Shown here: piece by piece, positions 5,586 through 33,845 of the stretch
Layout: every line of letters begins with the position of its first letter
How positions within the stretch are numbered: position 1 is the first letter of the stretch
Assembly (NCBI GenBank): GCA_902805735.1
Contig: CADCTW010000210.1
Span: forward strand, 1-35,458
Length of the DNA stretch: 35,458 nucleotides
Source of the DNA: an uncultured Gemmatimonadota bacterium
Lineage (GTDB): Bacteria; Gemmatimonadota; Gemmatimonadetes; Longimicrobiales; Longimicrobiaceae
Reading direction: 5' to 3'
Made by a program: the position numbers and the translations under genes
Notes under the pieces: generated by a model
What the model was told of the DNA's origin: nothing
What the model saw: the letters and a program-made list of their open reading frames with translations, nothing else
The model's database searches: none

Positions 5586-5635
5586 GGGCCCTCACCCCCC
5601 GACCCCCTCTCCCGATAACGGGAGAGGGGGCGATT
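5586..5635. repeat. Palindromic intergenic repeat, copy 1 (C/T-rich stem)
   Basis: A perfect 12-bp stem (CCCCCTCTCCCG at 5603-5614, CGGGAGAGGGGG at 5619-5630) with a 4-nt loop, preceded by CCCTCACCCCCC. It lies upstream of the trans-sulfuration gene and is an inverted copy of the element at 5718-5770. Confidence 0.8.
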
Positions 5636-5717
5636 TCCCATCATCCAGCCGCGACCGGCGTTCAGCGGAGCCGCGGGTCAGTAGAAACCCCGAGGTCCGC
5701 AGCGACACAGAAGATGC

Positions 5718-5770
5718 GCCCCCCCTCTCCCGTTATCGGGAGAGCGGGGGGTCGGGGGGGGTGAGGGTCC
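5718..5770. repeat. Palindromic intergenic repeat, copy 2 (inverted relative to copy 1)
   Basis: The stem CTCTCCCG (5725-5732) / CGGGAGAG (5737-5744) with loop TTAT is extended on each side by C-runs and G-runs and flanked by GGTGAGGGTCC, the reverse complement of the flank of copy 1. It sits 12 nt past the stop of the STAS-like gene ending at 5783 and could act as its terminator, though no T-run follows. Confidence 0.75.
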
Positions 5771-5782
5771 TTTCAGCGCACC

Positions 5783-6358
5783 TCACGCACTTCCATCTTC
5801 ATCCAGCAGCAGCGCCGACAGCGGCGACACCGTGCCGTCGCCGTGCGGCACCACCACGCGCTGGATCATGAAGCCCGTGAACGTCGCCGCGATGGCCTCT
5901 TCGGCCAGGCCCGTCTCGGCCACCAGCTCGGCGGCGGTGGCGCGGCCACGGCGGGCCAGGGCGTCCCAGGTGACGCGGTGCACGGGGTTGGCGCCGCCCA
6001 GCAGGTGCACGTACCCCTCGTCGTCCTCGGCCACCAGCAGCAACTCGTGGCGCTCGAGGACGGCCTCGATGGCCTCCACGTGGTGCTCCTGCACCCCGCG
6101 CACCACGAAGTACGCCTCGGCCGGGCGCTCCTCCCCCAGGAAGCGGAGGAGGAGCTTGGCCACGATCTCGTCCGCGCAGGAGTAGTCCAGGATGCGGACC
6201 TGCGAGAAGTCGAGGATCGAGAGGCAGAGCGAAGGCCCCGCCTCCATCTCGGCGAGCTGGCTCTCCACGGCGGTGCGGATGGCCCGGCCGGTGGGCCGGG
6301 TCACCAGGTTGCTGAAGAGCGAGCTCACCGAGCGGCGCGGCGAGAAGCGGTCGGACAT
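5783..6358 (-). CDS. STAS-like domain protein with C-terminal winged-helix-like region
   Basis: A 191-residue cytosolic protein. Residues about 20-110 resemble a STAS/anti-anti-sigma-like (DUF4325-type) domain: LSILDFSQVRILDYSCADEI matches the strand-helix element of STAS proteins that carries the phosphorylatable serine (here YSCADE). The C-terminal part (WDALARRGRATAAELVAETG, LAEEAIAATFTGFMIQR) looks like a small winged helix. It follows the cyclophilin gene by 22 nt on the same strand, and two genes upstream is a STAS-plus-histidine-kinase-like ATPase protein; the pair could be a partner-switching unit (inference). The ATG at 6358 is chosen, but a GTG at 6379 would add seven residues; neither has a strong ribosome site. 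Confidence 0.7.
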   Translation of the reverse strand: MSDRFSPRRSVSSLFSNLVTRPTGRAIRTAVESQLAEMEAGPSLCLSILDFSQVRILDYSCADEIVAKLLLRFLGEERPAEAYFVVRGVQEHHVEAIEAVLERHELLLVAEDDEGYVHLLGGANPVHRVTWDALARRGRATAAELVAETGLAEEAIAATFTGFMIQRVVVPHGDGTVSPLSALLLDEDGSA

Positions 6359-7910: not shown

Positions 7911-7936
7911 TCTCATCACACAGAGGCACAGAGAGG
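7911..7936. repeat. Half copy of the dispersed hairpin repeat
   Basis: Only the left arm (TCTCATCACACAGAGGCACA and a few more bases) of the CACAGAG-type palindrome is present, ending 3 nt before the PfkB kinase stop codon. The right arm is absent, so no hairpin is predicted. Confidence 0.75.
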
Positions 7937-7939
7937 CGT

Positions 7940-8884
7940 TCACCGCAGATGTTCGTACAGGCGGCTGGTGCCGCGCACGCCCATCTTGCGCGCGGCGGCG
8001 GAGTGGGCGGCCGCGACGGCGCCGTCCCACCCCCGCCCGCCGAGGAGGGACGCGAAAAAGGTGGCGCCCCACACGTCGCCGCACCCGGTGGGGTCGCCCG
8101 CGGCGGGGTTGCTGGGGTAGCGTCGTCCCGCGGCGCGGCCGGGCGCGCCTCCCCGCCCCGCCGGCCAGCCGAGCGGATCGGCGGGGGTCCCATCGCGGCG
8201 GAGGAGGGAGGCGCCCTCGGCGCCGTGCGTCACGGCGACCACGCGCGGGCCGGCGTCCATCAGCACGCGCGCCGCGTCCGGGCCCGGCGCCAGCATGCGC
8301 AGCTCGTCGTCGTTGAGCTGCACGGCGTCGAAGCAGGCGGCCCACCGCTCCCACTCCGGCAGGTGTCGCATCTGCCGCGTCCCCGCGCCCGGGCAGCCCA
8401 GGAAGAGCGAGTGCAGGTCGCTGTAGAGCGGCCCGGCGAACGATGCGCGGAGCCGCTCCGTGGCCTCCAGCCCCATCTCGAACCCGGTGACGTAGTTGAC
8501 GTACAGCGCGTCCAGCCCGGCCACGCGCGGCGCCAGCTCCTCCCAGGTCCACGCCTCCACGCCGCCGGTCAGCCGCTCCCCCCGCCGCGCATCGTCCGTG
8601 TAGCGCAGCTCCACCCGGTTGTTGGCCTCCGGCGCCGCCACCACCGCCGCCTCCGCGTCCACCCCGGGGAGCGTGGCGCAGAAGGCGCGCGCCTCCTCCA
8701 CCAGGTCCTCCCCCACGCGCGCCACGGCCACGACCTGCCACCCCTGCGGGCGCGCGGCGGCCGCGGCGGCGAGCGAGTACGCCACCCCGCCCCAGCTTTC
8801 AAAGGCCCGCCCCGCCGCCTGGTCCTCCAGCGTCCAGATGCGGTCCCACACGAAGGTGCCGAGGATGCCGAGACGCAGGGGCAT
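7940..8884 (-). CDS. PfkB-family carbohydrate/nucleoside kinase
   Basis: A 314-residue ribokinase-fold kinase. The second PfkB signature is AGDPTGCGDVWGATF near residues 262-276, with Asp270 as the predicted catalytic base; VQLNDDELRML (188-198) is the usual nucleotide-proximal segment and FESWGGVAYSLAAAAA (28-43) corresponds to the substrate-side GG motif. The canonical GAGD anion hole reads GCGD. The substrate cannot be told from sequence: fructose, ribose, adenosine and others are possible. The ATG at 8884 gives MPLRLGILGTFVWDRI, a normal family start, but no Shine-Dalgarno is evident. The gene is separated from the downstream ATPase/STAS gene by a half repeat, and from the ROK kinase by nested palindromes. 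Confidence 0.85.
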   Translation of the reverse strand: MPLRLGILGTFVWDRIWTLEDQAAGRAFESWGGVAYSLAAAAAARPQGWQVVAVARVGEDLVEEARAFCATLPGVDAEAAVVAAPEANNRVELRYTDDARRGERLTGGVEAWTWEELAPRVAGLDALYVNYVTGFEMGLEATERLRASFAGPLYSDLHSLFLGCPGAGTRQMRHLPEWERWAACFDAVQLNDDELRMLAPGPDAARVLMDAGPRVVAVTHGAEGASLLRRDGTPADPLGWPAGRGGAPGRAAGRRYPSNPAAGDPTGCGDVWGATFFASLLGGRGWDGAVAAAHSAAARKMGVRGTSRLYEHLR

Positions 8885-8905: not shown

Positions 8906-8980
8906 GCCCTCACCCGGCGGCCTGATAGCCGCCACCCTCTCCCAGTAACTGCCCTGGGAGAGGGGACTACTTCGGGTGCG
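8906..8980. repeat. Two-stem palindromic repeat, left copy of an inverted pair
   Basis: It contains two stems: GGCGGC/GCCGCC (8916-8921, 8928-8933) and an 11-bp stem CCCTCTCCCAG/CTGGGAGAGGG (8935-8945, 8954-8964). Its ends CCCTCACCCGGC and ACTTCGGGTGCG recur in reverse complement at 9090-9162. It is related to the repeats at 5586 and 5718. Confidence 0.85.
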
Positions 8981-8990
8981 TTTGCGGCAG

Positions 8991-9046
8991 GGGCACAGAG
9001 ACACGGAGGAGCCGTTCTCCCTGTGTCTCCGTGCCTCTGCGTGAGA
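8991..9046. repeat. Degenerate copy of the dispersed CACAGAG hairpin, nested inside the inverted pair
   Basis: The left arm GCACAGAGACACGGAGG (from 8993) pairs imperfectly with TCTCCCTGTGTCTCCGTGC (9016-9034), with several mismatches. It lies between the repeats at 8906-8980 and 9090-9162. Confidence 0.7.
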
Positions 9047-9089
9047 CTGCCTTTACTTCATCCTGCGCAACACTCCAAAACCTGCTCGC

Positions 9090-9162
9090 CGCACCCGAAG
9101 TCGTCCCCTCTCCCATGGTGTTTATGGGAGAGGGTGGCAGCTGTAAGCTGCCGGGTGAGGGC
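9090..9162. repeat. Two-stem palindromic repeat, right copy of the inverted pair
   Basis: An 11-bp stem CCCTCTCCCAT/ATGGGAGAGGG (9106-9116, 9124-9134) is followed by GGCAGCT/AGCTGCC (9136-9142, 9146-9152). It is the reverse complement in plan of 8906-8980, but the stems have compensatory changes (CAG/CTG versus CAT/ATG). It ends 4 nt before the ROK kinase stop codon. Confidence 0.85.
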
Positions 9163-13761: not shown

Positions 13762-15090
13762 ATGCATTTCGCAAGACTGGTGGCATCCTGCGCGGCCGTC
13801 GCGGCCGTGGCGTCGCCCCTTTCCGCGCAGCTCCCCTCCACCCCGCGGGCCCTGGGAATGGGCGGCGCGTACGTGGCGGTGGCGCGCGGGCAGGAGGCGC
13901 TCTTCACCAACCCCGCAAACCTGGCCCTGCCGGGGAACCCGCACACCTCCGCCGCGGCCCCGCAGATCACCTTCACGGGCACGCTGAACGGCATCACCTT
14001 CGGCGACGCCAACGACCTGCGCGGCTTCGACGACCTTTCGGCCGAGCAGCGCGCCGACATCCTGGGCCGCATCCCCGAAGAGGGCACCTCGGCCGACGTG
14101 GACCTGCGCGTCCCGGTCTTCTCCATGTCCGTGCGGCGCGCCATGTTCGGTGTATCGTACAACATCACCGGGCGGCATGGCGTGGCGCGCGACGTGGCGG
14201 ACCTGGTGCTGAACGGAGTGAGCATCGGGCGCCTCATCCCCGGCAACACCAACCCCTACGACGCGCAGGACATCCTGGACCGCTCGCAGGGCTACCGCGC
14301 CTCGTACTGGGACTTCGCGGGCGGCTACGCGCACCGCGTGGGCCCGGTAAGCCTGGGCGTCGTGGGGCACTACCTGCTCGGCGGCCGCCTGGTGCGCTCC
14401 GGCGCCGTGGGGGTGGACACGGTGCTCTCGCTGACCGCGCCGGACGTGCGCGTGACGTACGCGGGCGTGCGGCGCGAGGGCGCCAGCGGCTTCGGCCTGG
14501 ACGTGGGCGCGGCCTACCAGCCCACCCCCGCCCTCACCCTGAGCGCCGCCGTCGCCAACGCCGTCAATACGCTGGAGTGGAAGGGCGACCGCGAGATCTA
14601 CAACGTGGTCCTCAGCCGCGCCAACTACCGGAACGGCGACCCGGAACAGATCCGCAACGAGTACGCGGAGAGCGGCCAGCCGCTGGAGCGGGCCGACGCC
14701 CGCCTCCTGGCCCGCGCGCAGGGCCTGGTCGCCGACCTGGACGTGGGCGCCGAGCTGGCCCCCACCCTCCGCGCGGGCGCCGCCTGGCAGCCGCGCGCCG
14801 GCACCACCGTCGCCACTTCGTACCAGGGCGAGCTCTCCGACAGCCGCCTGAGCGGCCCCTGGAACCGCTCGCTGAGCATCGGCTGGCAGCAGAAGATCCC
14901 CGTGGTCACCGTGCGCGCCGGCGCCGCCACCGACCTGGAGAGCGGCGCCCTCCTGGGCGGCGGCCTTTCCCTGGGCCCGCTGCACCTGGGCGCCGCCCGC
15001 GTCACCGGCAGCGCCGAGGGCAACTCCAGCCAGCGCGGGTGGATTTTCACCTTCGGCCTCGGCGGGCGCACCAATAGCACCATGAACTAA
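13762..15090 (+). CDS. Outer-membrane beta-barrel protein, PorV/DUF5723-like
   Basis: A 442-residue protein with a signal peptide ([23 protein letters not shown], cleavage likely after LSA at about 22). The start of the mature chain, [20 protein letters not shown] followed by TNPANLAL, is the motif shared by FadL/PorV-type and related outer-membrane barrels in Bacteroidota and Gemmatimonadota. The rest alternates short hydrophobic strands ([40 protein letters not shown]) and ends near a strand-like WIFTFGLGG, followed by a short polar tail. Transport substrate or role is unknown. The ATG has no strong ribosome site; it diverges from lepA across about 250 bp in which I see no confident promoter. 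A strong hairpin terminator begins 8 nt past its stop. Confidence 0.72.
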
Positions 15091-15098
15091 AAAGAAGT

Positions 15099-15173
15099 CT
15101 CACACAGAGACACAGAGGCACAGAGATGACTTCATCTCTGTGCCTCTGTGTCTCTGTGTGAGTCCAGTTTTTT
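15099..15173. terminator. Perfect 31-bp palindrome with T-run: bidirectional terminator and copy of the dispersed repeat
   Basis: Arms at 15099-15129 and 15132-15162 are exact reverse complements (31 bp). A TTTTTT run follows at 15168-15173 and an AAAAA run precedes the left arm, so both strands have the hairpin-plus-U-run form of an intrinsic terminator. It sits between the convergent stops of the outer-membrane gene (15090) and the M28 peptidase (15172). Confidence 0.85.
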
Positions 15174-16743
15174 AGCGGGTCATCCCCCGTACTTCCTGCA
15201 GCCCTCTGGGGTCCCAGCGCGGCCGCTCGGGCGCGTTGGCGATGTCGTTGACCAGGTAGAACACGATGCGCGAGATGCGGGCGGCCTTGTCGGCGTCGAT
15301 CTTCTCCACGTGGTCGGACGGGCGGTGGTAATCCTCGTGCGGGCCGCTGAAGAAGAAGATGGAGGGGATCTCCTTGCGGGCGAAGTTGAAGTGGTCCGAG
15401 CGGAAGAAGAAGCGCTCCTCCGGCCACTTGTCGTCCGCCAGCGCCAGCCGCAGCTCCGGGTGCGCCGCGCCGATGCGGTCGGTGGTGCGGCCCAGCGTCG
15501 AGTAGTTCTTGCCGATCACCACCACCGTGTCCGGGTGGTTCCGCCCGATCATGTCCACGTTCACGTTGGCCACCATCTGCGCCAGCGGCAGCGTGGGATG
15601 GTCCGCGAACCACTCCGAGCCCAGCAGCCCCTTCTCCTCGCCGCTCACGTGCAGGAAGACGATGGAGCGCTTCGGCCGGTCGCGCATCATCGAGAGGGCC
15701 TGCGCCACCTCCAGCAGCGCCGTGGTCCCCGACGCGTCGTCGTCCGCGCCGTTGTAGATGGAGTCGCCGTTCACCGGCTGCCCCACGCCCACGTGGTCCA
15801 TGTGCGCGGAAACGACCACGTACTCGTTGCGCAGCCGCGGGTCGCTCCCCGGCAGCACGGCGATCACGTTGGGCGCCAGCCCGCGGTCCAGCTCCTCCTG
15901 CGGCAGCCCCACCGCCGCCGTCGCGCCCGTCAGCGCCACGGGGCGGAAGCCGGGGGCGGCGCCGCTCGTCCACAGCGTCTCCAGGGAGAGGCCGGCGCTC
16001 GTGAACATCCGGCTGGCGGCGTCGAAGCTCACGAACAGCTCGGGGTAGCCGGGCGCGCCGCCCAGCACGCGCCCGCCGCGGGTGGCCACGGCGCCGTACT
16101 TGGCGATGCTGTCCGCCGTCCACGAGCGCTCCAGCACGTGCACCACGGCCGCGGCGCCGGCCCGGCGGGCGGCGTTGCGCTGGCGGTTGCGCTCCAGGCG
16201 CCAGTCACGCGTGGCGCCGCCGGGGAGGGCCAACACCACCACGCGGCCCCGCATCGTCCCCTCGCCCAGCGCGGCGTCGGCGCCGCGCCCGGCGTACACC
16301 AGCCCGCCCGAAAGGGGCTGCGCGGTGCCGCCCGTGCCCCAGTAGTCGCGCCCCAGCTCCAGCGTCTGCCCGGCCAGCTCCAGCCGCGCGCCCGAAGCGC
16401 TCAGGCGGCGCAGCGGGTACGGGTACCACTGGTAGTACGAACGGTTCTCGCCGCCCGGCTGCAGCCCGAAAAGCTTGTGCTGGTTGACCAGGTACGACGC
16501 CGCGATGTTCAGCTCCGGGCTGGGCGTGTCGCGCCCGCGCATTGCGTCCGACGCCAGGAACTCGATGCGCGAGTACACGTCGGAAGGGGTGATGGTGGCC
16601 GCCGCATCGCGCAGCGTGAGCGTTCCCGGCGCGGGCGGCGCGGGGATGGCGCTGCTCTGCGCCGCGGCGTGGGGAACGACTGCCGCCGCGCTGGCGGCGA
16701 GCGCCAGCGCGGCGGAGATCACTACGGTCGGGCTGCGGGTCAT
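15172..16743 (-). CDS. Secreted M28-family zinc aminopeptidase
   Basis: A 523-residue exported metallopeptidase. An N-terminal signal peptide (about 1-28, ending AAAQ) is followed by a pro/PA-like region and the M28 catalytic domain. The two-zinc site is visible: SAHMDHVG (His314), NGADDDASG (bridging Asp near 335), the catalytic pair HVSGEEKG (Glu369/Glu370), VNVDMIGR (Asp397) and the C-terminal HEDYHRPSDHVEKID (His ligand). M28 enzymes release N-terminal residues from peptides; this one probably works in the periplasm or outside, supplying amino acids. The ATG at 16743 has a nearby AGG. Its 3' end meets the bidirectional terminator. An inserted domain between about 140 and 280 looks like the PA subdomain of M28 proteins. 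Confidence 0.92.
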   Translation of the reverse strand: MTRSPTVVISAALALAASAAAVVPHAAAQSSAIPAPPAPGTLTLRDAAATITPSDVYSRIEFLASDAMRGRDTPSPELNIAASYLVNQHKLFGLQPGGENRSYYQWYPYPLRRLSASGARLELAGQTLELGRDYWGTGGTAQPLSGGLVYAGRGADAALGEGTMRGRVVVLALPGGATRDWRLERNRQRNAARRAGAAAVVHVLERSWTADSIAKYGAVATRGGRVLGGAPGYPELFVSFDAASRMFTSAGLSLETLWTSGAAPGFRPVALTGATAAVGLPQEELDRGLAPNVIAVLPGSDPRLRNEYVVVSAHMDHVGVGQPVNGDSIYNGADDDASGTTALLEVAQALSMMRDRPKRSIVFLHVSGEEKGLLGSEWFADHPTLPLAQMVANVNVDMIGRNHPDTVVVIGKNYSTLGRTTDRIGAAHPELRLALADDKWPEERFFFRSDHFNFARKEIPSIFFFSGPHEDYHRPSDHVEKIDADKAARISRIVFYLVNDIANAPERPRWDPRGLQEVRGMTR

Positions 16744-18035: not shown

Positions 18036-18216
18036 ATGAGGTGTATCTCCAGTTGGGCGGGAAGCTGCACCCTCCACCGAGCAAGCGCCGTTCCCACCCG
18101 CCCGCTTTTCCCAAGCTATTCCATCGCAACGAATTACGCCACCGCCTCCCCTCCGCCCGGCCCTCCCGTGTCCCCGCACGTGGACGCGCGTTCTCGCGTT
18201 TTGGACGGGCGAGGGG

Positions 18217-18278
18217 TCACACAGAGACACAGAGGCACAGAGAAGAGCTGTTCTCTGTGCCTCTGTGTCTCTGTGTGA
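18217..18278. repeat. Dispersed hairpin repeat, 28-bp perfect arms
   Basis: Arms 18217-18244 and 18251-18278 are exact reverse complements with a 6-nt loop (GAGCTG). The right arm ends 8 nt from the VapC stop. No T-run follows on the minus strand. Confidence 0.9.
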
Positions 18279-18286
18279 GCCTTTCG

Positions 18287-18709
18287 TCACCCGTTCCAGG
18301 GGTTGAGGATGTCGACGCCGTGGCCGCGGAAGTCGCGCTCGTTGCGGGTGACGACGACAAGCTGTCGCATCCTCGCCGTGGCGAGGAGCACCGCATCGGC
18401 GAACGAGAGCGCACGCCCGGCTCGGATGCTCTCCGCCAGTGACCGCCCCCACTCGCGGGCGATGGAGATGTCCACGGGAATGGAACGCTCCAGGAAACTT
18501 TCGATTAGCCATTCGTCCAACCACCGGGTCAGCGTCTCGCGCTTCTTTCCTGGAGGAAGGAGCAGGATGCCTTTCTGGATCTCACCTACGCTGATCGAGC
18601 TGACCGCGAGGTCGCCGGGCGATTGGCGGAGTACCCAGCCGATCACGTGCGGGTCAGGGCGTGGCCGGGAGAACTCGGATAGCACGTTCGTGTCCAGGAG
18701 GTAGCGCAC
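18287..18709 (-). CDS. vapC: VapC-like PIN-domain ribonuclease toxin
   Basis: A 140-residue PIN-domain protein. The acidic, metal-binding residues are all present: Asp6 (LLDTNVLSE), Glu43 (SVGEIQKG), Asp105 (FADAVLLATA) and Asp126 (NERDF). VapC toxins cut tRNA or rRNA and are held inactive by their cognate antitoxin. The GTG start lies 3 nt after the stop of the antitoxin gene, so the two are co-translated. No strong Shine-Dalgarno is seen, consistent with coupling. RNA target unknown. The gene pair is bracketed by copies of the dispersed hairpin at 18217-18278 and 19186-19253. Confidence 0.92.
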   Translation of the reverse strand: MRYLLDTNVLSEFSRPRPDPHVIGWVLRQSPGDLAVSSISVGEIQKGILLLPPGKKRETLTRWLDEWLIESFLERSIPVDISIAREWGRSLAESIRAGRALSFADAVLLATARMRQLVVVTRNERDFRGHGVDILNPWNG

Positions 18710-19051: not shown

Positions 19052-19185
19052 CCGCGCCTCCCGGTTGCAACTCGATTCAAGCCCCTCAATCCGAAGGTAA
19101 CCGAAGCATTTCGGACGCGGCAACGGGACAGCAGAAACCGGATCTGCCGGTGGCGCAAGCAGATCCGTACGATTGGGCCACGGGG

Positions 19186-19253
19186 GGCTCACACAGAGAC
19201 ACAGAGGCACAGAGAAGAGCTTTTCTCTGTGCCTCTGTGTCTCTGTGTGAGCC
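19186..19253. repeat. Dispersed hairpin repeat, 31-bp perfect arms
   Basis: Arms 19186-19216 and 19223-19253 are exact reverse complements with a 6-nt loop. It ends 2 nt before the SDR stop codon and lies upstream of the antitoxin gene; probable 3' end of the trehalose/maltosyl operon transcript. Confidence 0.9.
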
Positions 19254-19255
19254 AA

Positions 19256-19960
19256 TCAGTACAGGGAGATGGCGCTTCCGCTGGGCTCGGGCGCGGCGCT
19301 GGAGCAGAGGGCCACGATCCGCGCGGCGACCGCTTCCGTCGAGGTCCAGGCGGAGGGGTCGGCGTCGGGCATGGCGGCGCGGTTGGCCGGGGTGTCGAGG
19401 GTGTCCGGGAGCACGGCGTAGGAGCGGAGCGCCGGGTACTCCTCGGCGATGACCTCGGCCAGCGTGAGGAGGGCGGACTTGGAGACCGCGTACGCGCCGT
19501 TGCGGGCCCGCCGCTCGCGCGCGGCGCGCGACGAAACGAAGAGGATCGTGCCTCCCTCGCCCAGCACGGGAAGCGCGGCGCGCGCCACCAGGTAGGCGGA
19601 GCGGAGGTTCAGGTCGATCATGCGGTCCCACAGGTCGGCGGGGGTGTCGCCGAGCAGCACGCCGCCGGACCAGGCGCCCACCAGGTGCGCCACCGAGTCC
19701 AGCCGGCCCGACCATTCGAACGCCTCCTGCACGGCGGCGGCGGCGCCCCGCTCCGTGGTCAGGTCCAGGTGGCACGAGTCCACCCGGCCGCTGAACTCGT
19801 GCGCCAGGCCGTCCAGCGCGCCCGCGTCGCCCTTGTGCAGCGGCACGAAGACGCGATGGCCCGCCTGGAGGAAGGCGCGCGTGACGGCGCGGCCCAGGTT
19901 GCCCGCGCCCCCGGTAACCATCGTCACCGGCCCAGCGTTTTCAGGTGAGTTCTTCGCCAT
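19256..19960 (-). CDS. Short-chain dehydrogenase/reductase
   Basis: A 234-residue classical SDR. The nucleotide-binding motif TGGAGNLG is at 16-23, the structural DLT is in HLDLTTE, and the catalytic set is Ser143/Ser144 (FVSSRAA), Tyr157 and Lys161 (YAVSK). The substrate is not predictable. It overlaps the 3' end of malQ by 20 nt, so it is the last gene of the treS-GH13-malQ operon, though the link to glucan metabolism is only positional. The ATG at 19960 is the furthest upstream start; the alternative M14 would cut into the Rossmann strand, so it is less likely. The normal NAG motif (AHLVGAW here) is altered. Confidence 0.85.
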   Translation of the reverse strand: MAKNSPENAGPVTMVTGGAGNLGRAVTRAFLQAGHRVFVPLHKGDAGALDGLAHEFSGRVDSCHLDLTTERGAAAAVQEAFEWSGRLDSVAHLVGAWSGGVLLGDTPADLWDRMIDLNLRSAYLVARAALPVLGEGGTILFVSSRAARERRARNGAYAVSKSALLTLAEVIAEEYPALRSYAVLPDTLDTPANRAAMPDADPSAWTSTEAVAARIVALCSSAAPEPSGSAISLY

Positions 19961-26135: not shown

Positions 26136-26203
26136 ATCTCACACAGAGACACGGAGGCACAGAGATCACTTCATCTCTGTGCCTCCGTGTCTCTGTGTGA
26201 GAT
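26136..26203. repeat. Dispersed hairpin repeat, 31-bp perfect arms
   Basis: Arms 26136-26166 and 26173-26203 pair exactly, including a compensated A-to-G change (ACACGGAGG/CCTCCGTGT) relative to other copies. It lies 12 nt past the substrate-binding protein stop and upstream of treS. Confidence 0.9.
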
Positions 26204-26215
26204 GATGCCGTTGTA

Positions 26216-27346
26216 CTACCGCGCCGTCACCAGCTCGCCGCCGCGCACCACGCCGATCAGCACCGGCTTGCGCACCACGTCGCCGTTCTGGTCGAACTGG
26301 ATGTTGCCGGAGACGCCCTCGTGGGCGTTGCCCTCCCTCACCGTCTCCAGGTGGGCGCGGATGGCCGCGCGGTCGGTGCCGGCCTTCTCGATGGCACGGC
26401 GCAGCAGGTAGACGATGTCGTACGTCTGCGCGGCGCGGTGGTCGGGCGACTTGTTGAAGCGGCGGCGGTACTCGGCCACGAAGGCGCGCGCCCGCGGCTC
26501 CTGGCTGTCCGCCAGGAAGGCGGAGCTCACGAACACCCCCTCGCCCACCCCGCCCGCGTCCTTGACCCCCGTGAGGCCGTCGGAGCCCATGATGGGCCCG
26601 CGGAAGCCCAGGCGCCGCGCGGCCTGGATGATGGACACCCCCGCGTCCGCCTGCCCGCCGATCACCAGCGCGTCGGCGCCGCGCCGCATGGCGCGCACCA
26701 GGTACGCGTCCAGCGACTGGGGGTTCTTGATGACGGCGGGAAGGTACGGGTCCGCCGAGACGATCTGGCCCCCCTGCCCGCGGAAGGCAGACTCGAAGGT
26801 GGAGGTCACGCCCTGGCCGTACTCGTCGTTCGCGTACAGCACCGCCGCCCTGCTGCTCCCCAGCACCGTGCGCGCGTGCCGCGCCAGCGCGGGCGAGAAC
26901 TCCAGGTCCGTAGGCGTCACGCGGAAGGTCCACGGCCCCGCGCCCGTCAGCGCCGGCGCGCTGGAGGCGGGCGAGATCTCCACCACGGGATCGCCCGCCA
27001 TGCTGTCGCTCTTCACCGCGTTGTAGATGGTGGCCGCCTTCACGGAGACGGCGGAGTTGACGTGGCCGATCACCGCGACCACGTCCTCGTCCATGCGCAG
27101 CTCGCGGGCGACCTCGATCCCCCGCTTCTCGCTCTTCTCGTCGTCCTCGATCCGCAGCTCCAGCATGCGGCCGCCGATCCCGCCCTTGCGGTTGATCTCA
27201 GCCACGGCCATCTCGGCCGCGTTCCGCACCGATTGGCCGTTGGTCTCCTTCATCGGCCCGGCCACGCCGAGGACGATGGTCTCCTCGCTCCGGCCGCACG
27301 CGGCGAGCAGGAGCACGGCGAGGGAGGCCGCGAGCCGCATTTTCAT
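26216..27346 (-). CDS. Branched-chain amino acid-type ABC transporter substrate-binding lipoprotein
   Basis: A 376-residue periplasmic binding protein of the LivJ/LivK (type I) fold. A lipoprotein signal runs from residue 1 with lipobox LLAAC (Cys17). The mature part starts IVLGVAGPMKETNGQSVRNA and contains AVAEINRKGGIGGRMLELRI, VVAVIGHVNSAVSVKAA, VLYANDEYGQGVTSTFESAF and a second lobe MGSDGLTGV, all standard in this family. No permease or ATPase genes follow in the window, so it may be an orphan binding or sensing component. An ATG at 27358 is an alternative start. It follows the HTH gene by only 19 nt, so the two are probably co-transcribed from the promoter at 27788-27815. Confidence 0.87.
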   Translation of the reverse strand: MKMRLAASLAVLLLAACGRSEETIVLGVAGPMKETNGQSVRNAAEMAVAEINRKGGIGGRMLELRIEDDEKSEKRGIEVARELRMDEDVVAVIGHVNSAVSVKAATIYNAVKSDSMAGDPVVEISPASSAPALTGAGPWTFRVTPTDLEFSPALARHARTVLGSSRAAVLYANDEYGQGVTSTFESAFRGQGGQIVSADPYLPAVIKNPQSLDAYLVRAMRRGADALVIGGQADAGVSIIQAARRLGFRGPIMGSDGLTGVKDAGGVGEGVFVSSAFLADSQEPRARAFVAEYRRRFNKSPDHRAAQTYDIVYLLRRAIEKAGTDRAAIRAHLETVREGNAHEGVSGNIQFDQNGDVVRKPVLIGVVRGGELVTAR

Positions 27347-27973: not shown

Positions 27974-29191
27974 ATGGAGCCAGTGACACCACGCGGCGCG
28001 CGCTTACGGGCGCGCACTCCGCGCCGTAACACAGTCCGGCGGTGGTGCATCCCCCCCGCCATCCTGAGCGAGCCGGACGAGACGCTGGAGGGTACGGGGA
28101 TCCTGGACGAGCACCGCGGCGAGGCGGGGCTCCTCCTGTGGCACTCCCTTCGGGACGTCACGCTGTGGGCGGCCGTGTCGCCGGCGGAGCGCGCGGCCCT
28201 CTTCGCCCCGCCAGCGGCGGCCGAGCGGCTGCGCCTGCTGCGCGCCGCCGGGGTGGAGCCCACGCTGGAGGTGTCGCTGACCACGCTGGCGGCGCTGGTG
28301 GGGAACCCGTCCGGCGCCAGCGCGGAGATCGTGACGCTGGTGTGCCTGCAGGTGTCGCGCTGGGCGCAGGAGCGGGGCGCGCCCAACACCACGCTGGCCT
28401 TCGCGCAGGCGGGGGCCCTCGCGTCGCCGGAAGACGCGTCGGCCGCGCTGGCCGTGGGGGTGCTGGCCCTGCACTTCCGCCGCCTGCCCCGGGCGGAGAC
28501 GTGGCTGCGCCGCACCGTGGGGCTGGCGCGGCGGCGGCGGGACTGGGGCTCGTACGCGCAGGCGTGGGTGGAGCTGGGCCGCCTGTACACGCGCCGGGGC
28601 TCCGCCGACATCGCCCGCCGCGCCCTGATCAAGGGGCTGCGGGCCAGCCGCCGCCACGGACTTCTTTCGATCCGGGCCACCGCACTGCACGGCCTTTTCT
28701 TGCTCACCCTGGAATCGGGGGAGTTCGACGACGCGGAGCGCCTGGCGCGGCTGGCGATGCGCGCGTACGGCCGCGGCAGCGCTCGCCAGCCGGAGCTGCA
28801 GCACGACCTGGCGCGCCTGTGGGTGCACCGCGGCGCGTACGACCGGGCGGTCCCCGCGCTGCAGAAGCTCCTCCCCACCCGCGTGCACCCGGACGAGCGG
28901 GTGCTGACGCTGGCCCTGCTGGCGCGTGCCGCCGCGGGGGTGGGCAACCGCCCGCTGTACCAGGAGATGTGGTGGGACGCGTGGACGCTGGTGGAGCGCG
29001 GCGGCGACCACGAGACGCTGGCCCGCGCGCTGCTGCAGATGGCGCACGCCTCCGCGCTGCTGCGCGACGCGCCCCGGCTGGACCAGGCGTGCCGCCACGC
29101 CCTGCGCGGCCCCCTGCGCGGCGCGGAGCCCCGCGTGCTGGACGAGGTGGAGGCGCTGGCCGCGACGCTGCGTGCGCCCGCCACCCCGTGA
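27974..29191 (+). CDS. Tetratricopeptide-repeat protein, function unknown
   Basis: A 405-residue helical repeat protein without signal peptide or membrane segment. An N-terminal region (about 32-150: EGTGILDEHRGEAGLLLWHS, LRDVTLWAAVSP, VSRWAQERGAPNTTLAFAQA) is followed by about six TPR-like helix pairs, e.g. DWGSYAQAWVELGRLYTRRG, DIARRALIKGLRASRRHGLL, FDDAERLARLAMRAYGRG and LARLWVHRGAYDRAVPALQK. No enzymatic motif is seen; TPRs suggest protein-protein contacts, perhaps in regulation. The ATG at 27974 has CCCGGAGG six nt upstream. A GTGA overlap joins it to a truncated paralogue of its own N-terminal region. It is driven by the promoter at 27767-27795. Confidence 0.75.
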   Translation: MEPVTPRGARLRARTPRRNTVRRWCIPPAILSEPDETLEGTGILDEHRGEAGLLLWHSLRDVTLWAAVSPAERAALFAPPAAAERLRLLRAAGVEPTLEVSLTTLAALVGNPSGASAEIVTLVCLQVSRWAQERGAPNTTLAFAQAGALASPEDASAALAVGVLALHFRRLPRAETWLRRTVGLARRRRDWGSYAQAWVELGRLYTRRGSADIARRALIKGLRASRRHGLLSIRATALHGLFLLTLESGEFDDAERLARLAMRAYGRGSARQPELQHDLARLWVHRGAYDRAVPALQKLLPTRVHPDERVLTLALLARAAAGVGNRPLYQEMWWDAWTLVERGGDHETLARALLQMAHASALLRDAPRLDQACRHALRGPLRGAEPRVLDEVEALAATLRAPATP

Positions 29192-29559
29192 CTCCGCTCC
29201 ACCCGGAGGACGAGCTGATGGAGGGGTGCCTGCTGGTGGCGGAGCTGGGGGAGGAGGCGGGGCTGGCCGTATGGCACGCGCTGCGCGACGCCCGCTGCTG
29301 GACCCCGCAGCGCACCCCGGCGGGCCGCATCGGCAGGCTGCGCGGCCTCTCCCTGCCGCAGGAGCTGTGGGCCCCGCTCGCCGTCGTGGCCTGCCTCGCC
29401 GACGGCGTGGGCCCGGCGGACGAGACGCGCCTGCGCCACGCCTGCCGCCAGATCGTCCGCTGGGCCGAGGCCAACCGCGCCTGGCGCACCGCCCTGGCCT
29501 GGGAAGCGCTGCTGGCTACCAGAAGGGGCTCACACAGAGACGCAGAGGCACAGAGATGA
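29188..29559 (+). pseudogene. Truncated paralogue of the upstream TPR gene, cut at a hairpin repeat
   Basis: A 123-residue product from the GTG at 29188 (or the better-spaced ATG at 29218, GGAGG upstream). HPEDELMEGCLLVAELGEEA, GLAVWHALRDARCW and later CRQIVRWAEANRAWRTALAW match the N-terminal third of the upstream TPR protein (about residues 30-150) in order. The homology stops exactly where the hairpin at 29526 begins; the last residues, GSHRDAEAQR, are translated from the repeat. All TPR units are missing. It is therefore probably a degraded copy rather than a functional small protein, although translation could still occur. Confidence 0.65.
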
Positions 29560-29599
29560 AGTCTCCGTGCCTCTGTGTCTCTGTGTGAGCCCTGTTTTT
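29526..29599. repeat. Dispersed hairpin repeat (31-bp arms, 2 mismatches) with T-run
   Basis: Arms 29526-29556 and 29562-29592 pair with two mismatches. TTTTT (29595-29599) follows on the plus strand, so it can act as an intrinsic terminator for plus-strand transcripts. It contains the stop region of the truncated paralogue and ends 6 nt from the lipoprotein stop. Confidence 0.8.
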
Positions 29600-30285: not shown

Positions 30286-30558
30286 ATGAAGTTCTGGAGA
30301 CTGACCCCCCGCCACGACACCCTGTGGTGGTGCGTGGACGGCAAGGACCCCTGGCAGCCACACCACGAGCGCGCCTTCGGCTTCGTGGTACGCGCGGCCG
30401 ACGCCGAAGAGGCGCGCTGGCTGGCCCACCAGGCCGGCGGCGAGGAGAACGGCACCATCGAGGGGATCCGCCCCTGGCTGGACGACAGCTACTCCACCTG
30501 CGAAGAGCTCGGGGGCGACGGCTCCGCCGAGGTGCTCCTCGTCAACTTCAGGCACTGA
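30286..30558 (+). CDS. Small conserved-looking protein, function unknown
   Basis: A 90-residue soluble protein, MKFWRLTPRHDTLWWCVDGK at the start, then RAFGFVVRAADAEEARWLAH, QAGGEENG and a tail DDSYSTCEELGGDGSAEVLL. The A-D-A-E-E-A-R-W pattern after a strand resembles small domains whose 'AADAEEA' helix handles a ligand or a partner, but I cannot name a family. AAGG lies directly before the ATG. It is flanked by the divergent lipoprotein and, at its stop codon, by a 34-bp hairpin repeat. Confidence 0.6.
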   Translation: MKFWRLTPRHDTLWWCVDGKDPWQPHHERAFGFVVRAADAEEARWLAHQAGGEENGTIEGIRPWLDDSYSTCEELGGDGSAEVLLVNFRH

Positions 30559-30632
30559 GAATCTCACACAGAGACACAGAGCCACAGAGAAAAGCCTCTT
30601 TCTCTGTGGCTCTGTGTCTCCGTGTGAGATTC
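30559..30632. repeat. Dispersed hairpin repeat, 34-bp arms with one mismatch
   Basis: Arms 30559-30592 and 30599-30632 pair with a single mismatch (position 30621). Unlike other copies, it reads GAGCC/GGCTC in the centre, a compensated change. It begins immediately after the small gene's stop and ends 1 nt before the leucine dehydrogenase stop; probable bidirectional terminator. Confidence 0.85.
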
Positions 30633-30633
30633 T

Positions 30634-32947: not shown

Positions 32948-32979
32948 TCTCACACAGACGCACGGAGACACGGAGAGAA
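32948..32979. repeat. Half copy of the dispersed hairpin repeat
   Basis: Only one arm (TCTCACACAGACGCACGGAG and following bases) is present, with variant positions; it ends 5 nt before the hydroxyacyl-CoA dehydrogenase stop. No pairing arm, so no strong hairpin. Confidence 0.7.
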
Positions 32980-32984
32980 ACGAC

Positions 32985-33845
32985 TCACGCGCTTCTGTAG
33001 TCGTAGAACCCTTCGCCCGACTTCCGGCCCAGCTTGCCGGCGGCCACGTACTTCCGCAGCAGCGGGCAGGGGCGGTACTTGTCGTCGCCCAGGCCGCTGT
33101 GCAGGACTTCCATGATGGCCAGGCAGGTGTCCAGCCCGATGAGGTCCGCCAGGGCGAGCGGGCCCATGGGGTGGTTCATCCCCAGCTTCATCACGGTGTC
33201 GATCGCCTCCTTCTCCGCGACGCCCTCCATGAGGCAGAAGACCGCCTCGTTGATCATGGGCATCAGGATGCGGTTGGCCACGAAGCCGGGGTAGTCCTGC
33301 GCCTCGGCCACCGTCTTCCCCAGGCGCTCCGCGAGCTGCACCGTGGCGCGCGTGGTCTCGTCGGAGGTGGCGAGGCCGCGGATGATCTCCACCAGCTTCA
33401 TCACCGGCACCGGGTTCATGAAGTGCATCCCGATCACCTGCGCCGGGCGCCCCGTCTGCGCGGCGATCTCGGTGATGGAGATGGACGACGTGTTGGTGGC
33501 CAGGATGGCGTGCGCCGGCGCGTGCGCGTCCATGTCGCGGAAGATGCGGAACTTGAGGTCCCGGCTCTCCGTCGCCGCCTCCACCACGAGGTCCGCGTCC
33601 GCCACGGCGCTCAGCTCCGTGGCGGAGGCGATCCGCCCCAGCGCCGCGTCGCGGTCGGCCTCGGCCAGCGTGCCCTTTTTGATCTGCCGGTCCATGTTCC
33701 CGGTAATGGTGGCGCGCGCCTGGTCCAGCGCTTCCTGCCGCACGTCCACCATCGTCACGTCGAAGCCGTTCTGGGCGAAGACGTGAACGATCCCGTTCCC
33801 CATCGTCCCCGCGCCGATCACGGCGACTTTCTTGATCTCAGCCAT
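32985..33845 (-). CDS. 3-hydroxyacyl-CoA (3-hydroxybutyryl-CoA) dehydrogenase
   Basis: A 286-residue NAD(P)-dependent dehydrogenase. The Rossmann motif GAGTMGNGI starts at residue 11; [11 protein letters not shown] (118-128) and [17 protein letters not shown] (catalytic His141) are the family motifs; the C-terminal domain follows with [15 protein letters not shown] and ends KSGEGFYDY, the normal ending of Hbd/PaaH-type enzymes. It reduces or oxidises 3-hydroxybutyryl-type CoAs. TTTGGAGC precedes the ATG at 33845. It is the first gene of the hbd-acyl-CoA dehydrogenase-leucine dehydrogenase run (gaps of 66 and 89 nt), so shared transcription is plausible. Confidence 0.95.

What the first reader, a model, noticed from the sequence alone, without database searches (positions are those of the whole stretch)
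15099..15173. A dispersed 28-34-bp-arm palindrome family lies at gene 3' ends throughout the window
Full copies are at 15099, 18217, 19186, 26136, 29526 and 30559; a degenerate one is at 8991; half copies are at 7911 and 32948. The core is CTCACACAGAGACACAGAGG. Eight of the nine lie 0-12 nt from a stop codon. Centre positions vary but change in compensated pairs (A/T to G/C at 26136; GAGCC/GGCTC at 30559), so base pairing, not primary sequence, appears to be kept. This points to an RNA or DNA hairpin with a function such as termination, 3'-end protection, or a mobile REP-like element that prefers 3' ends.
Basis: partly seen in the sequence, partly recalled or inferred. Interest (0 to 1): 0.72.

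Follow-up and report, generated by a model that had tools for sequence, protein, structure and literature searches.

The report
Repeat hairpins serving as gene terminators
One bacterium carries an estimated 1,500 copies of a short repeat, just over half of them complete palindromes of about 62 bases, which sit right after stop codons and appear to have taken over the job of ending transcription, while related species mostly use ordinary terminators there.

Summary
The palindromes are real and far more widespread than the window. The unnamed 5.79-Mb draft genome has 370 matches to a degenerate full-palindrome pattern; an 823-kb sample has 214 copies (118 full, 96 single-arm). Full copies hug stop codons: 148 of 169 flanking stops lie within 25 nt; 52 of 93 convergent gaps hold one, 4 of 95 divergent gaps do. 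A- and T-tracts flank them on the correct strand, though a run of four T follows only 31% of convergent and 16% of tandem copies. Another intrinsic terminator is found at 4 of 51 convergent junctions with a full copy, against 62 of 95 in six congeners. Best reading: a bidirectional terminator hairpin that multiplied in one species and displaced ordinary terminators. It fails the REP tests applied. Arms are tandem 8-mers (CACAGAGR); congeners have variant letters, and at one orthologous junction three species have hairpins of three different short repeats. Precedents: uptake sequences in Neisseria terminators, cyanobacterial STRRs, REPINs. Termination is inferred, not measured; what spreads the repeat is unknown.

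The parts
15089..15172 (.). Full palindrome with A-tract (TAAAAAG) and T-tract (GTTTTTTA); the only sequence between two convergent stop codons (15090 and 15172)
   Evidence: (15085-15175 as RNA: -66.4 kcal/mol, z -15.9)
18214..18281 (.). Full palindrome, 5 nt from the stop of the minus-strand ORF ending at 18287
19185..19253 (.). Full palindrome, 2 nt from the stop of the minus-strand gene ending at 19256
26136..26203 (.). Full palindrome with a mirrored A-to-G change in both arms; 12 nt from the stop at 26216
29526..29592 (.). Full palindrome with a short loop between convergent genes, followed by GTTTTT; the called upstream gene (29188-29559) ends inside its loop, the opposite stop is at 29599
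30559..30633 (.). Full palindrome between convergent stops at 30558 and 30634, mirrored G-to-C change. At the orthologous place G005 has a single arm and G006 a degenerate palindrome, each with a further GC-rich terminator-like hairpin (read by eye)
8991..9047 (.). Degenerate palindrome nested inside a longer inverted-repeat element (about 8907-9161)
7911..7935 (+). Single arm beside the stop of the minus-strand gene ending at 7940
32948..32979 (+). Single arm, 5 mismatches to the core, 5 nt from the stop at 32985; at the orthologous place G006 has a hairpin of inverted AGGGATT repeats

Best explanation
Each full copy is a bidirectional intrinsic transcription terminator. The gene's stop codon runs into an A-rich tract, then a stem of 27 bp or more whose arms are three tandem 8-mers (TCA-CACAGAGA-CACAGAGG-CACAGAGA) around a short variable loop, then a T-rich tract; read from the other side it is the same, so one copy can end two convergent genes. 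The palindrome, usually 62 bp, multiplied recently in this one species and displaced the ordinary hairpin-plus-T terminators that its congeners mostly have at this kind of junction. Single-arm copies are most simply truncated or never-completed units. Shown by calls: copy number, placement, tract enrichment, scarcity of other terminators, species restriction. Inferred: that the hairpin terminates transcription, and that it displaced the older terminators. Unknown: what copies it.
For: Placement: 118 full copies in 823 kb: 55 in convergent, 57 in tandem, 4 in divergent gaps, 2 elsewhere; 148 of 169 flanking stops within 25 nt; 0 full copies in 212 tandem gaps under 40 nt. Random intergenic placement gives 13% of stops within 25 nt (first 435 kb). 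Tracts, in 106 of the 118 full copies with both ends recognised: a T-run of 4 or more within 20 nt downstream in 31% of 104 convergent strands and 16% of 50 tandem copies; intergenic background 2%, A-runs downstream of tandem copies 2%. Other intrinsic terminator at 4 of 51 convergent junctions with a full copy, 9 of 19 own junctions without a copy (Fisher p 5e-4), 62 of 95 in six congeners (58 of 85 at their no-repeat junctions, p 2e-12). At 15099 and 29526 two congeners have gaps of about 360-380 nt with other repeats and hairpins, where this genome has only the palindrome. In G005, 9 of the 10 full copies in 20 chosen regions lie within 30 nt of a stop, and several of its longer copies end in GAGGCTTTT or GAGGCTTTTT right after the hairpin.
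Against: Most copies lack a strong T-tract: 69% of convergent strands and 84% of tandem copies have no run of 4 T within 20 nt. The T-rich stretch lies about 7-11 nt beyond the conserved stem, and the flanks between are complementary in only 25-58% of copies per position. The stem is far longer than usual terminators. Mismatches show no RNA-strand bias (tandem 20 G-U, 19 A-C; convergent 8 and 16). Own convergent gaps are short (median 78 nt), which leaves little room for a second terminator whatever the cause. In congeners, junctions with other periodic hairpins do not clearly lack classical terminators (4 of 10 v 58 of 85, p 0.09). The gene caller and terminator finder are my own simple scripts, not benchmarked.
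Confidence: 0.62

Rival explanations
1. A selfish REPIN-like hairpin element mobilised by a RAYT or an unknown enzyme, which inserts at, or survives only at, 3' ends; termination is incidental.
For: Burst in one species: 238 strict copies here, 0 in 40 relatives. Symmetric arms with a poorly kept loop, mirrored changes and hundreds of extragenic copies, as passages of PMC3116915 describe for REPINs. Two Y1_Tnp genes are present, and one (L032) has copies of the element on both sides, outside its own palindromes.
Against: Each Y1_Tnp gene is immediately flanked by other palindromes, which recur in the sample (48 and 21 matches counted on both strands, so fewer places). Y1_Tnp number does not follow element number: G003 has 6 matches, one partial, with 12 half-arm matches; G004 (86% complete, 530 contigs) has none with 39 half-arm matches. 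No GTAG end. Insertion bias alone does not predict strand-correct T-tracts or scarcity of other terminators.
Confidence: 0.2
2. A 3'-end mRNA stabiliser: a strong hairpin that blocks 3' exonucleases after termination further down.
For: Very stable stem (median -53.7 kcal/mol for 88 copies), tight placement after stops, weak T-tract in most copies.
Against: Convergent genes with a copy mostly lie within 80 nt of each other (33 of 52 such gaps are under 80 nt), so transcripts passing the hairpin would run antisense into the neighbour; the scarcity of other terminators there then needs another explanation.
Confidence: 0.12
3. A DNA-level signal such as an uptake sequence or a protein-binding site that happens to be paired into hairpins.
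For: Letter 'dialects' between species and terminators built from paired repeats parallel Neisseria uptake sequences (passages of PMC1852404; search listing of PMC3630211). Arm sequence as well as pairing is kept.
Against: Only 5 of 214 sites were not assigned to a gap between genes, gaps being widened by 28 nt on each side; uptake sequences are, from recall, common inside genes. No competence gene or receptor was sought.
Confidence: 0.06

Closest known systems
DNA uptake sequences paired into terminators (Neisseria, Pasteurellaceae; PMC1852404, passages read)
   Same: A short, hugely repeated sequence in inverted pairs forms terminator hairpins (the passage gives about 55% of a set of predicted Neisseria terminators; here 52 of 93 sampled convergent gaps hold a full copy).
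   Different: Here the arm is a tandem array of 8-mers, single arms are mostly at 3' ends too, sites inside genes are rare, and no link to competence was tested.
Cyanobacterial STRR (short tandemly repeated repetitive) sequences (PMC2670836, passages read)
   Same: Intergenic arrays of usually 7-bp repeats that can fold into a hairpin; [quoted passage not shown]
   Different: 8-bp unit, near-perfect inverted arrays with a short loop, stop-codon placement at genome scale. Homology was not tested.
REPIN and GTAG- or CGTC-tagged REPs (PMC3116915, PMC3733652, passages read)
   Same: Hundreds of extragenic palindromic copies, symmetric hairpin, mirrored changes, variable loop.
   Different: No GTAG or CGTC end; stem of 27 bp or more against 5-13 bp in the table of PMC3733652; a single arm is not itself a palindrome; no matching RAYT found.
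Ordinary bidirectional intrinsic terminators (general knowledge)
   Same: A-tract, hairpin and T-tract between convergent stops.
   Different: The same sequence at hundreds of loci; very long stem; often a weak T-tract.

Membership tests
Bidirectional intrinsic terminator | Stable hairpin just after stop codons, between convergent genes or at the end of tandem genes | tested here: met
Bidirectional intrinsic terminator | T-tract following the stem on the transcribed side | tested here: inconclusive
   Strongly enriched, but a run of 4 or more in only 31% of convergent strands and 16% of tandem copies
Bidirectional intrinsic terminator | Transcripts end there | not testable with these tools
   no RNA data
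[quoted passage not shown]
   Ends are CTCA..TGAG; definition from passages of PMC3733652
REP / REPIN | Cognate RAYT gene directly flanked by the same repeat | tested here: not met
   Both Y1_Tnp genes have other palindromes next to them; L032 has copies of this element further out. The genome is 86% complete, so a third gene may be missing
REP / REPIN | Extragenic, hundreds of copies, symmetric hairpin | tested here: met
DNA uptake sequence | Many single copies inside coding DNA | tested here: not met
   5 of 214 sites not assigned to a gap; the defining feature is recalled
DNA uptake sequence | Uptake receptor and uptake bias | not tested
   -
STRR | Intergenic tandem 7-bp units that can form a hairpin | tested here: inconclusive
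   8-bp unit here; 7-, 8- and 9-bp units in congeners; homology to cyanobacterial STRRs not tested
Rfam families | Match at the gathering score | tested here: not met
   0 matches in the window

The most novel reading that the evidence does not exclude
Within this genus there is a class of 3'-end terminator hairpins whose stems are inverted arrays of 7-9-bp tandem repeats. The unit is a species-level 'dialect' (CACAGAGR, GGGGAATG, GGGATGAG, AAGTGCT, AAGTCCT, AGTGCGTG and others), is exchanged at orthologous gene ends, and propagates as a repeat, so that in this genome transcription termination has been largely taken over by one self-spreading sequence. (Odds lowered from 0.35 to 0.30 on recheck, because such hairpins sit at only 10 of 95 convergent junctions of the congeners and their lack of other terminators there is not significant, p 0.09.)
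Probability: 0.3. Interest if true: 0.75.

Novelty: new variant of a known kind. Interest (0 to 1): 0.6.

Why it matters
Terminators are usually thought of as arising one by one at each gene. Here one repeat seems to supply the terminator at more than half of the sampled convergent junctions of a species, while close relatives mostly have classical terminators, or hairpins of other repeats, in such places. If right, it shows rapid genome-wide turnover of terminators by an amplifying repeat, gives a natural series for measuring which hairpin features end transcription, and offers an explanation for the unnamed tandem-repeat hairpins seen at gene ends.

Tried and rejected
Canonical REP/RAYT: rejected as membership. 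Phage or plasmid origin: no match in 50,697 phage or 72,556 plasmid records at E 1e-3 (low-complexity filtering may hide some); 2 viral contigs hold palindromes of this kind. Rfam: no match in the window. RNA-level wobble test: no signal. Lack of SbcCD as the reason why long palindromes survive: not supported, an sbcD match over the cut-off exists. The reversed-sequence control for site counts (201 sites) is not valid, because the reversed core resembles the repeat in a shifted register; I replaced it by a Markov control. The reversed-pattern controls of the half-arm search (105/86 here) suffer in the same way. A first, strict periodicity filter found only 16 periodic hairpins here and was loosened (102); no random-placement baseline was computed. 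The flank motif AACNGC is enriched beside CACRGAG-like hairpins (38 of 194 sides here, 11 of 36 in relatives) and other-unit hairpins of relatives (9 of 48), not beside other-unit hairpins here (1 of 26), against 28 of 471 and 49 of 786 other gene ends: suggestive only. Literature: letter searches for the core (one irrelevant paper) and for other units (none), and topic searches, gave only the related systems named here; that the family is undescribed rests on these searches alone.

Full report
What is there. The window is one whole contig (C210) of an unnamed 5.79-Mb draft genome in 254 contigs, 86% complete, 5% contaminated. All nine places of the finding hold the described sequence. The full unit is a palindrome of usually 62 bp: TCA-CACAGAGA-CACAGAGG-CACAGAGA, a loop of mostly 8 nt, and the reverse complement; each arm is three tandem 8-mers.

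Genome scale. A strict degenerate palindrome pattern has 238 matches in the genome and the reversed pattern 0; a looser one has 370. In 822,719 bases (and the window, 14% of the genome; the contigs were taken from those seen in hit lists, mostly long ones, so the sample is not random) I find 214 sites: 118 with both arms, 96 with one; a Markov control of the same length gives 0. Extrapolated, about 1,500 sites and 830 full copies. Of the 96 single arms, 76 have no exact complement of 10 nt or more in the next 90 nt, so most are truly single.

Species restriction. The strict pattern has no match in 40 relatives, nine of them of the same genus; the looser one matches once in one of 394 other genomes of the phylum. 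Half-arm matches with one mismatch allowed (forward/reverse) are 924/898 here, 60/87 in G005, 46/44 in G006, 18/30 in G001, 20/19 in G004, 12 or fewer in all in each of the other five of the genus, and 2/0, 1/3 and 3/0 in three of 31 genomes outside the genus (its reversed control is not independent). So hairpins of this kind occur elsewhere, but the burst is specific to this species among the genomes searched.

Placement. With my own simple gene caller, full copies lie in 55 convergent, 57 tandem and 4 divergent gaps and 2 other places; single arms in 17, 63, 13 and 3. 52 of 93 convergent gaps hold a full copy and 15 more a single arm; 57 of 525 tandem gaps hold a full copy, none of the 212 under 40 nt (6 of those hold a single arm); 4 of 95 divergent gaps hold a full copy. 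148 of 169 stops flanking full copies are within 25 nt. Random placement in intergenic DNA gives 13% (on the first 435 kb, where 99 of 126 stops flanking full and single copies were that near). For single arms 68 of 98 stops are within 25 nt, and there the CTCA end faces the stop in 49 of 68.

Terminator layout. In the 106 of 118 full copies whose two ends were recognised, upstream positions are A-rich and downstream positions T-rich on the transcribed strand; T-runs of 4 or more are found in 31% of 104 convergent strands (each copy counted from both sides) and 16% of 50 tandem copies, against 2% for A-runs downstream of tandem copies and 2% in background. Against this, most copies have no such run, and the T-rich positions lie about 7-11 nt beyond the conserved stem. 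The stretch 15085-15175 folds at -66.4 kcal/mol (z -15.9).

Other terminators. With the repeat masked, a simple intrinsic-terminator finder scores 4 of 51 convergent junctions with a full copy, 2 of 15 with a single arm, 9 of 19 with neither, and 62 of 95 in six congeners (gaps of 20 nt or more; an earlier smaller run gave 15 of 18 in relatives). The difference also holds between own junctions with and without a copy (p 5e-4). For tandem gaps of 80 nt or more there is no contrast: 7 of 54 with a full copy, 8 of 36 with a single arm, 27 of 151 without. Short gaps contribute to the convergent result. Reading by eye: at 15099 and 29526, G005 and G006 have gaps of about 360-380 nt with hairpins and other repeats; at 30559, G005 has a single arm plus a GC-rich hairpin and G006 a degenerate copy plus one.

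Sequence evolution. In 88 full copies arms differ by 6-7% on average, 8-nt loops by 42% even when the better strand is taken (random loops 65%), with a palindromic loop consensus TGARYTCA and 61 distinct loops. Arm changes sit at six purine positions (141 of 171), and mirrored changes exceed shuffles (37 against 9.5). Tandem copies have 20 G-U and 19 A-C mismatches, convergent ones 8 and 16 on the strand read, so there is no sign of selection on the RNA strand. In the five loop classes with four or more copies the flanks differ from copy to copy, so the moving or homogenised unit is the palindrome itself.

Dialects and a wider class. In the listed matches the third unit is preceded mainly by G here, A in G005 and C in G006 (lists are capped). 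G005 carries a longer form with ends AGAACTGCAACTGCATGG..CCATGCAGTTGCAGTTCT. A scan for hairpins whose arms have 6-10-bp periodicity finds 102 here and 35 in 1.03 Mb of six congeners; 14 of the 35 are CACRGAG-like by my reading of the list and 21 have other units (AAGTGCT, AAGTCCT, CACTGGG, AATGGGG, AGTGCGTG and others); 28 of the 35 have a stop within 40 nt (no baseline computed). G009 has only 2 in 231 kb. At the orthologous convergent junction C134:9733-9810 this genome has (CACAGAGR)3, G005 (GGGGAATG)n and G006 (GGGATGAG)n inverted arrays, folding at -60.6, -52.4 and -65.2 kcal/mol. At the tandem place 32948 this genome has a single arm and G006 a hairpin of AGGGATT repeats. The other convergent junction with orthologues (C134:18711-18789) has a GC-rich hairpin and an extra gene-like stretch in both congeners. 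In congeners only 10 of 95 convergent junctions have a periodic hairpin, and 4 of these 10 also have a classical terminator (p 0.09 against no-repeat junctions), so the wide reading is less secure than the one for this genome.

What spreads it. Unknown. Two Y1_Tnp genes are present, each between its own other palindromes; L032 has copies of the present element outside those. Y1_Tnp counts do not follow element counts across the genus. An inverted structure at about C134:2810-3150 joins two copies, in opposite order, to another element, so inverted duplication of such DNA does occur here; one case.

Verdict. Observation confirmed; interpretation partly supported. It works most like a bidirectional terminator and, as far as tested, belongs to no named repeat family. 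The taxon is not named by any search; a relative of Longimicrobium (Gemmatimonadota) is a guess from recall only.

Noticed in passing
window 8907-9161: A longer inverted-repeat element (CCCTCACCCGGCGGCC..CTCTCCCA.. / ..TGGGAGAGGG..GCCGGGTGAGGG) that contains the degenerate copy at 8991; the same element recurs at about C134:2870-3100 between two copies of the palindrome in opposite order.
   Followed up: partly
window 5590-5761: Another inverted pair (CCTCACCCCCCGACCCCCTCTCCCGATAACGGGAGAGGGGG, 83% complementary, 90 nt apart) about 20 nt from the stop of the minus-strand gene ending at 5783.
   Followed up: no
L031 (C238) and L032 (C66): Two IS200-like Y1_Tnp genes, each between its own palindromes (AGTCCGC..GCGGACT and AGCCCGCTGAAGCGGGCT types; 48 and 21 matches in 823 kb counted on both strands).
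   Followed up: partly
L089-L092 (G006:C37, G005:C265): GTAGGGGC-headed repeats: 10 in 40 kb of G006 and 9 in 28 kb of G005, 31 in 823 kb of this genome; the repeat families of congeners differ strongly.
   Followed up: no
L051:3487-3544, L047:13752-13831, L156:1945-1999: Single arms stretched into arrays of about 7 to 10 tandem 8-mers, suggesting slippage of the unit.
   Followed up: no
L125, L126 (viral contigs): Palindromes of the same kind with other ends (CCACAGAG..CTCTGTGG) in two IMG/VR contigs.
   Followed up: no
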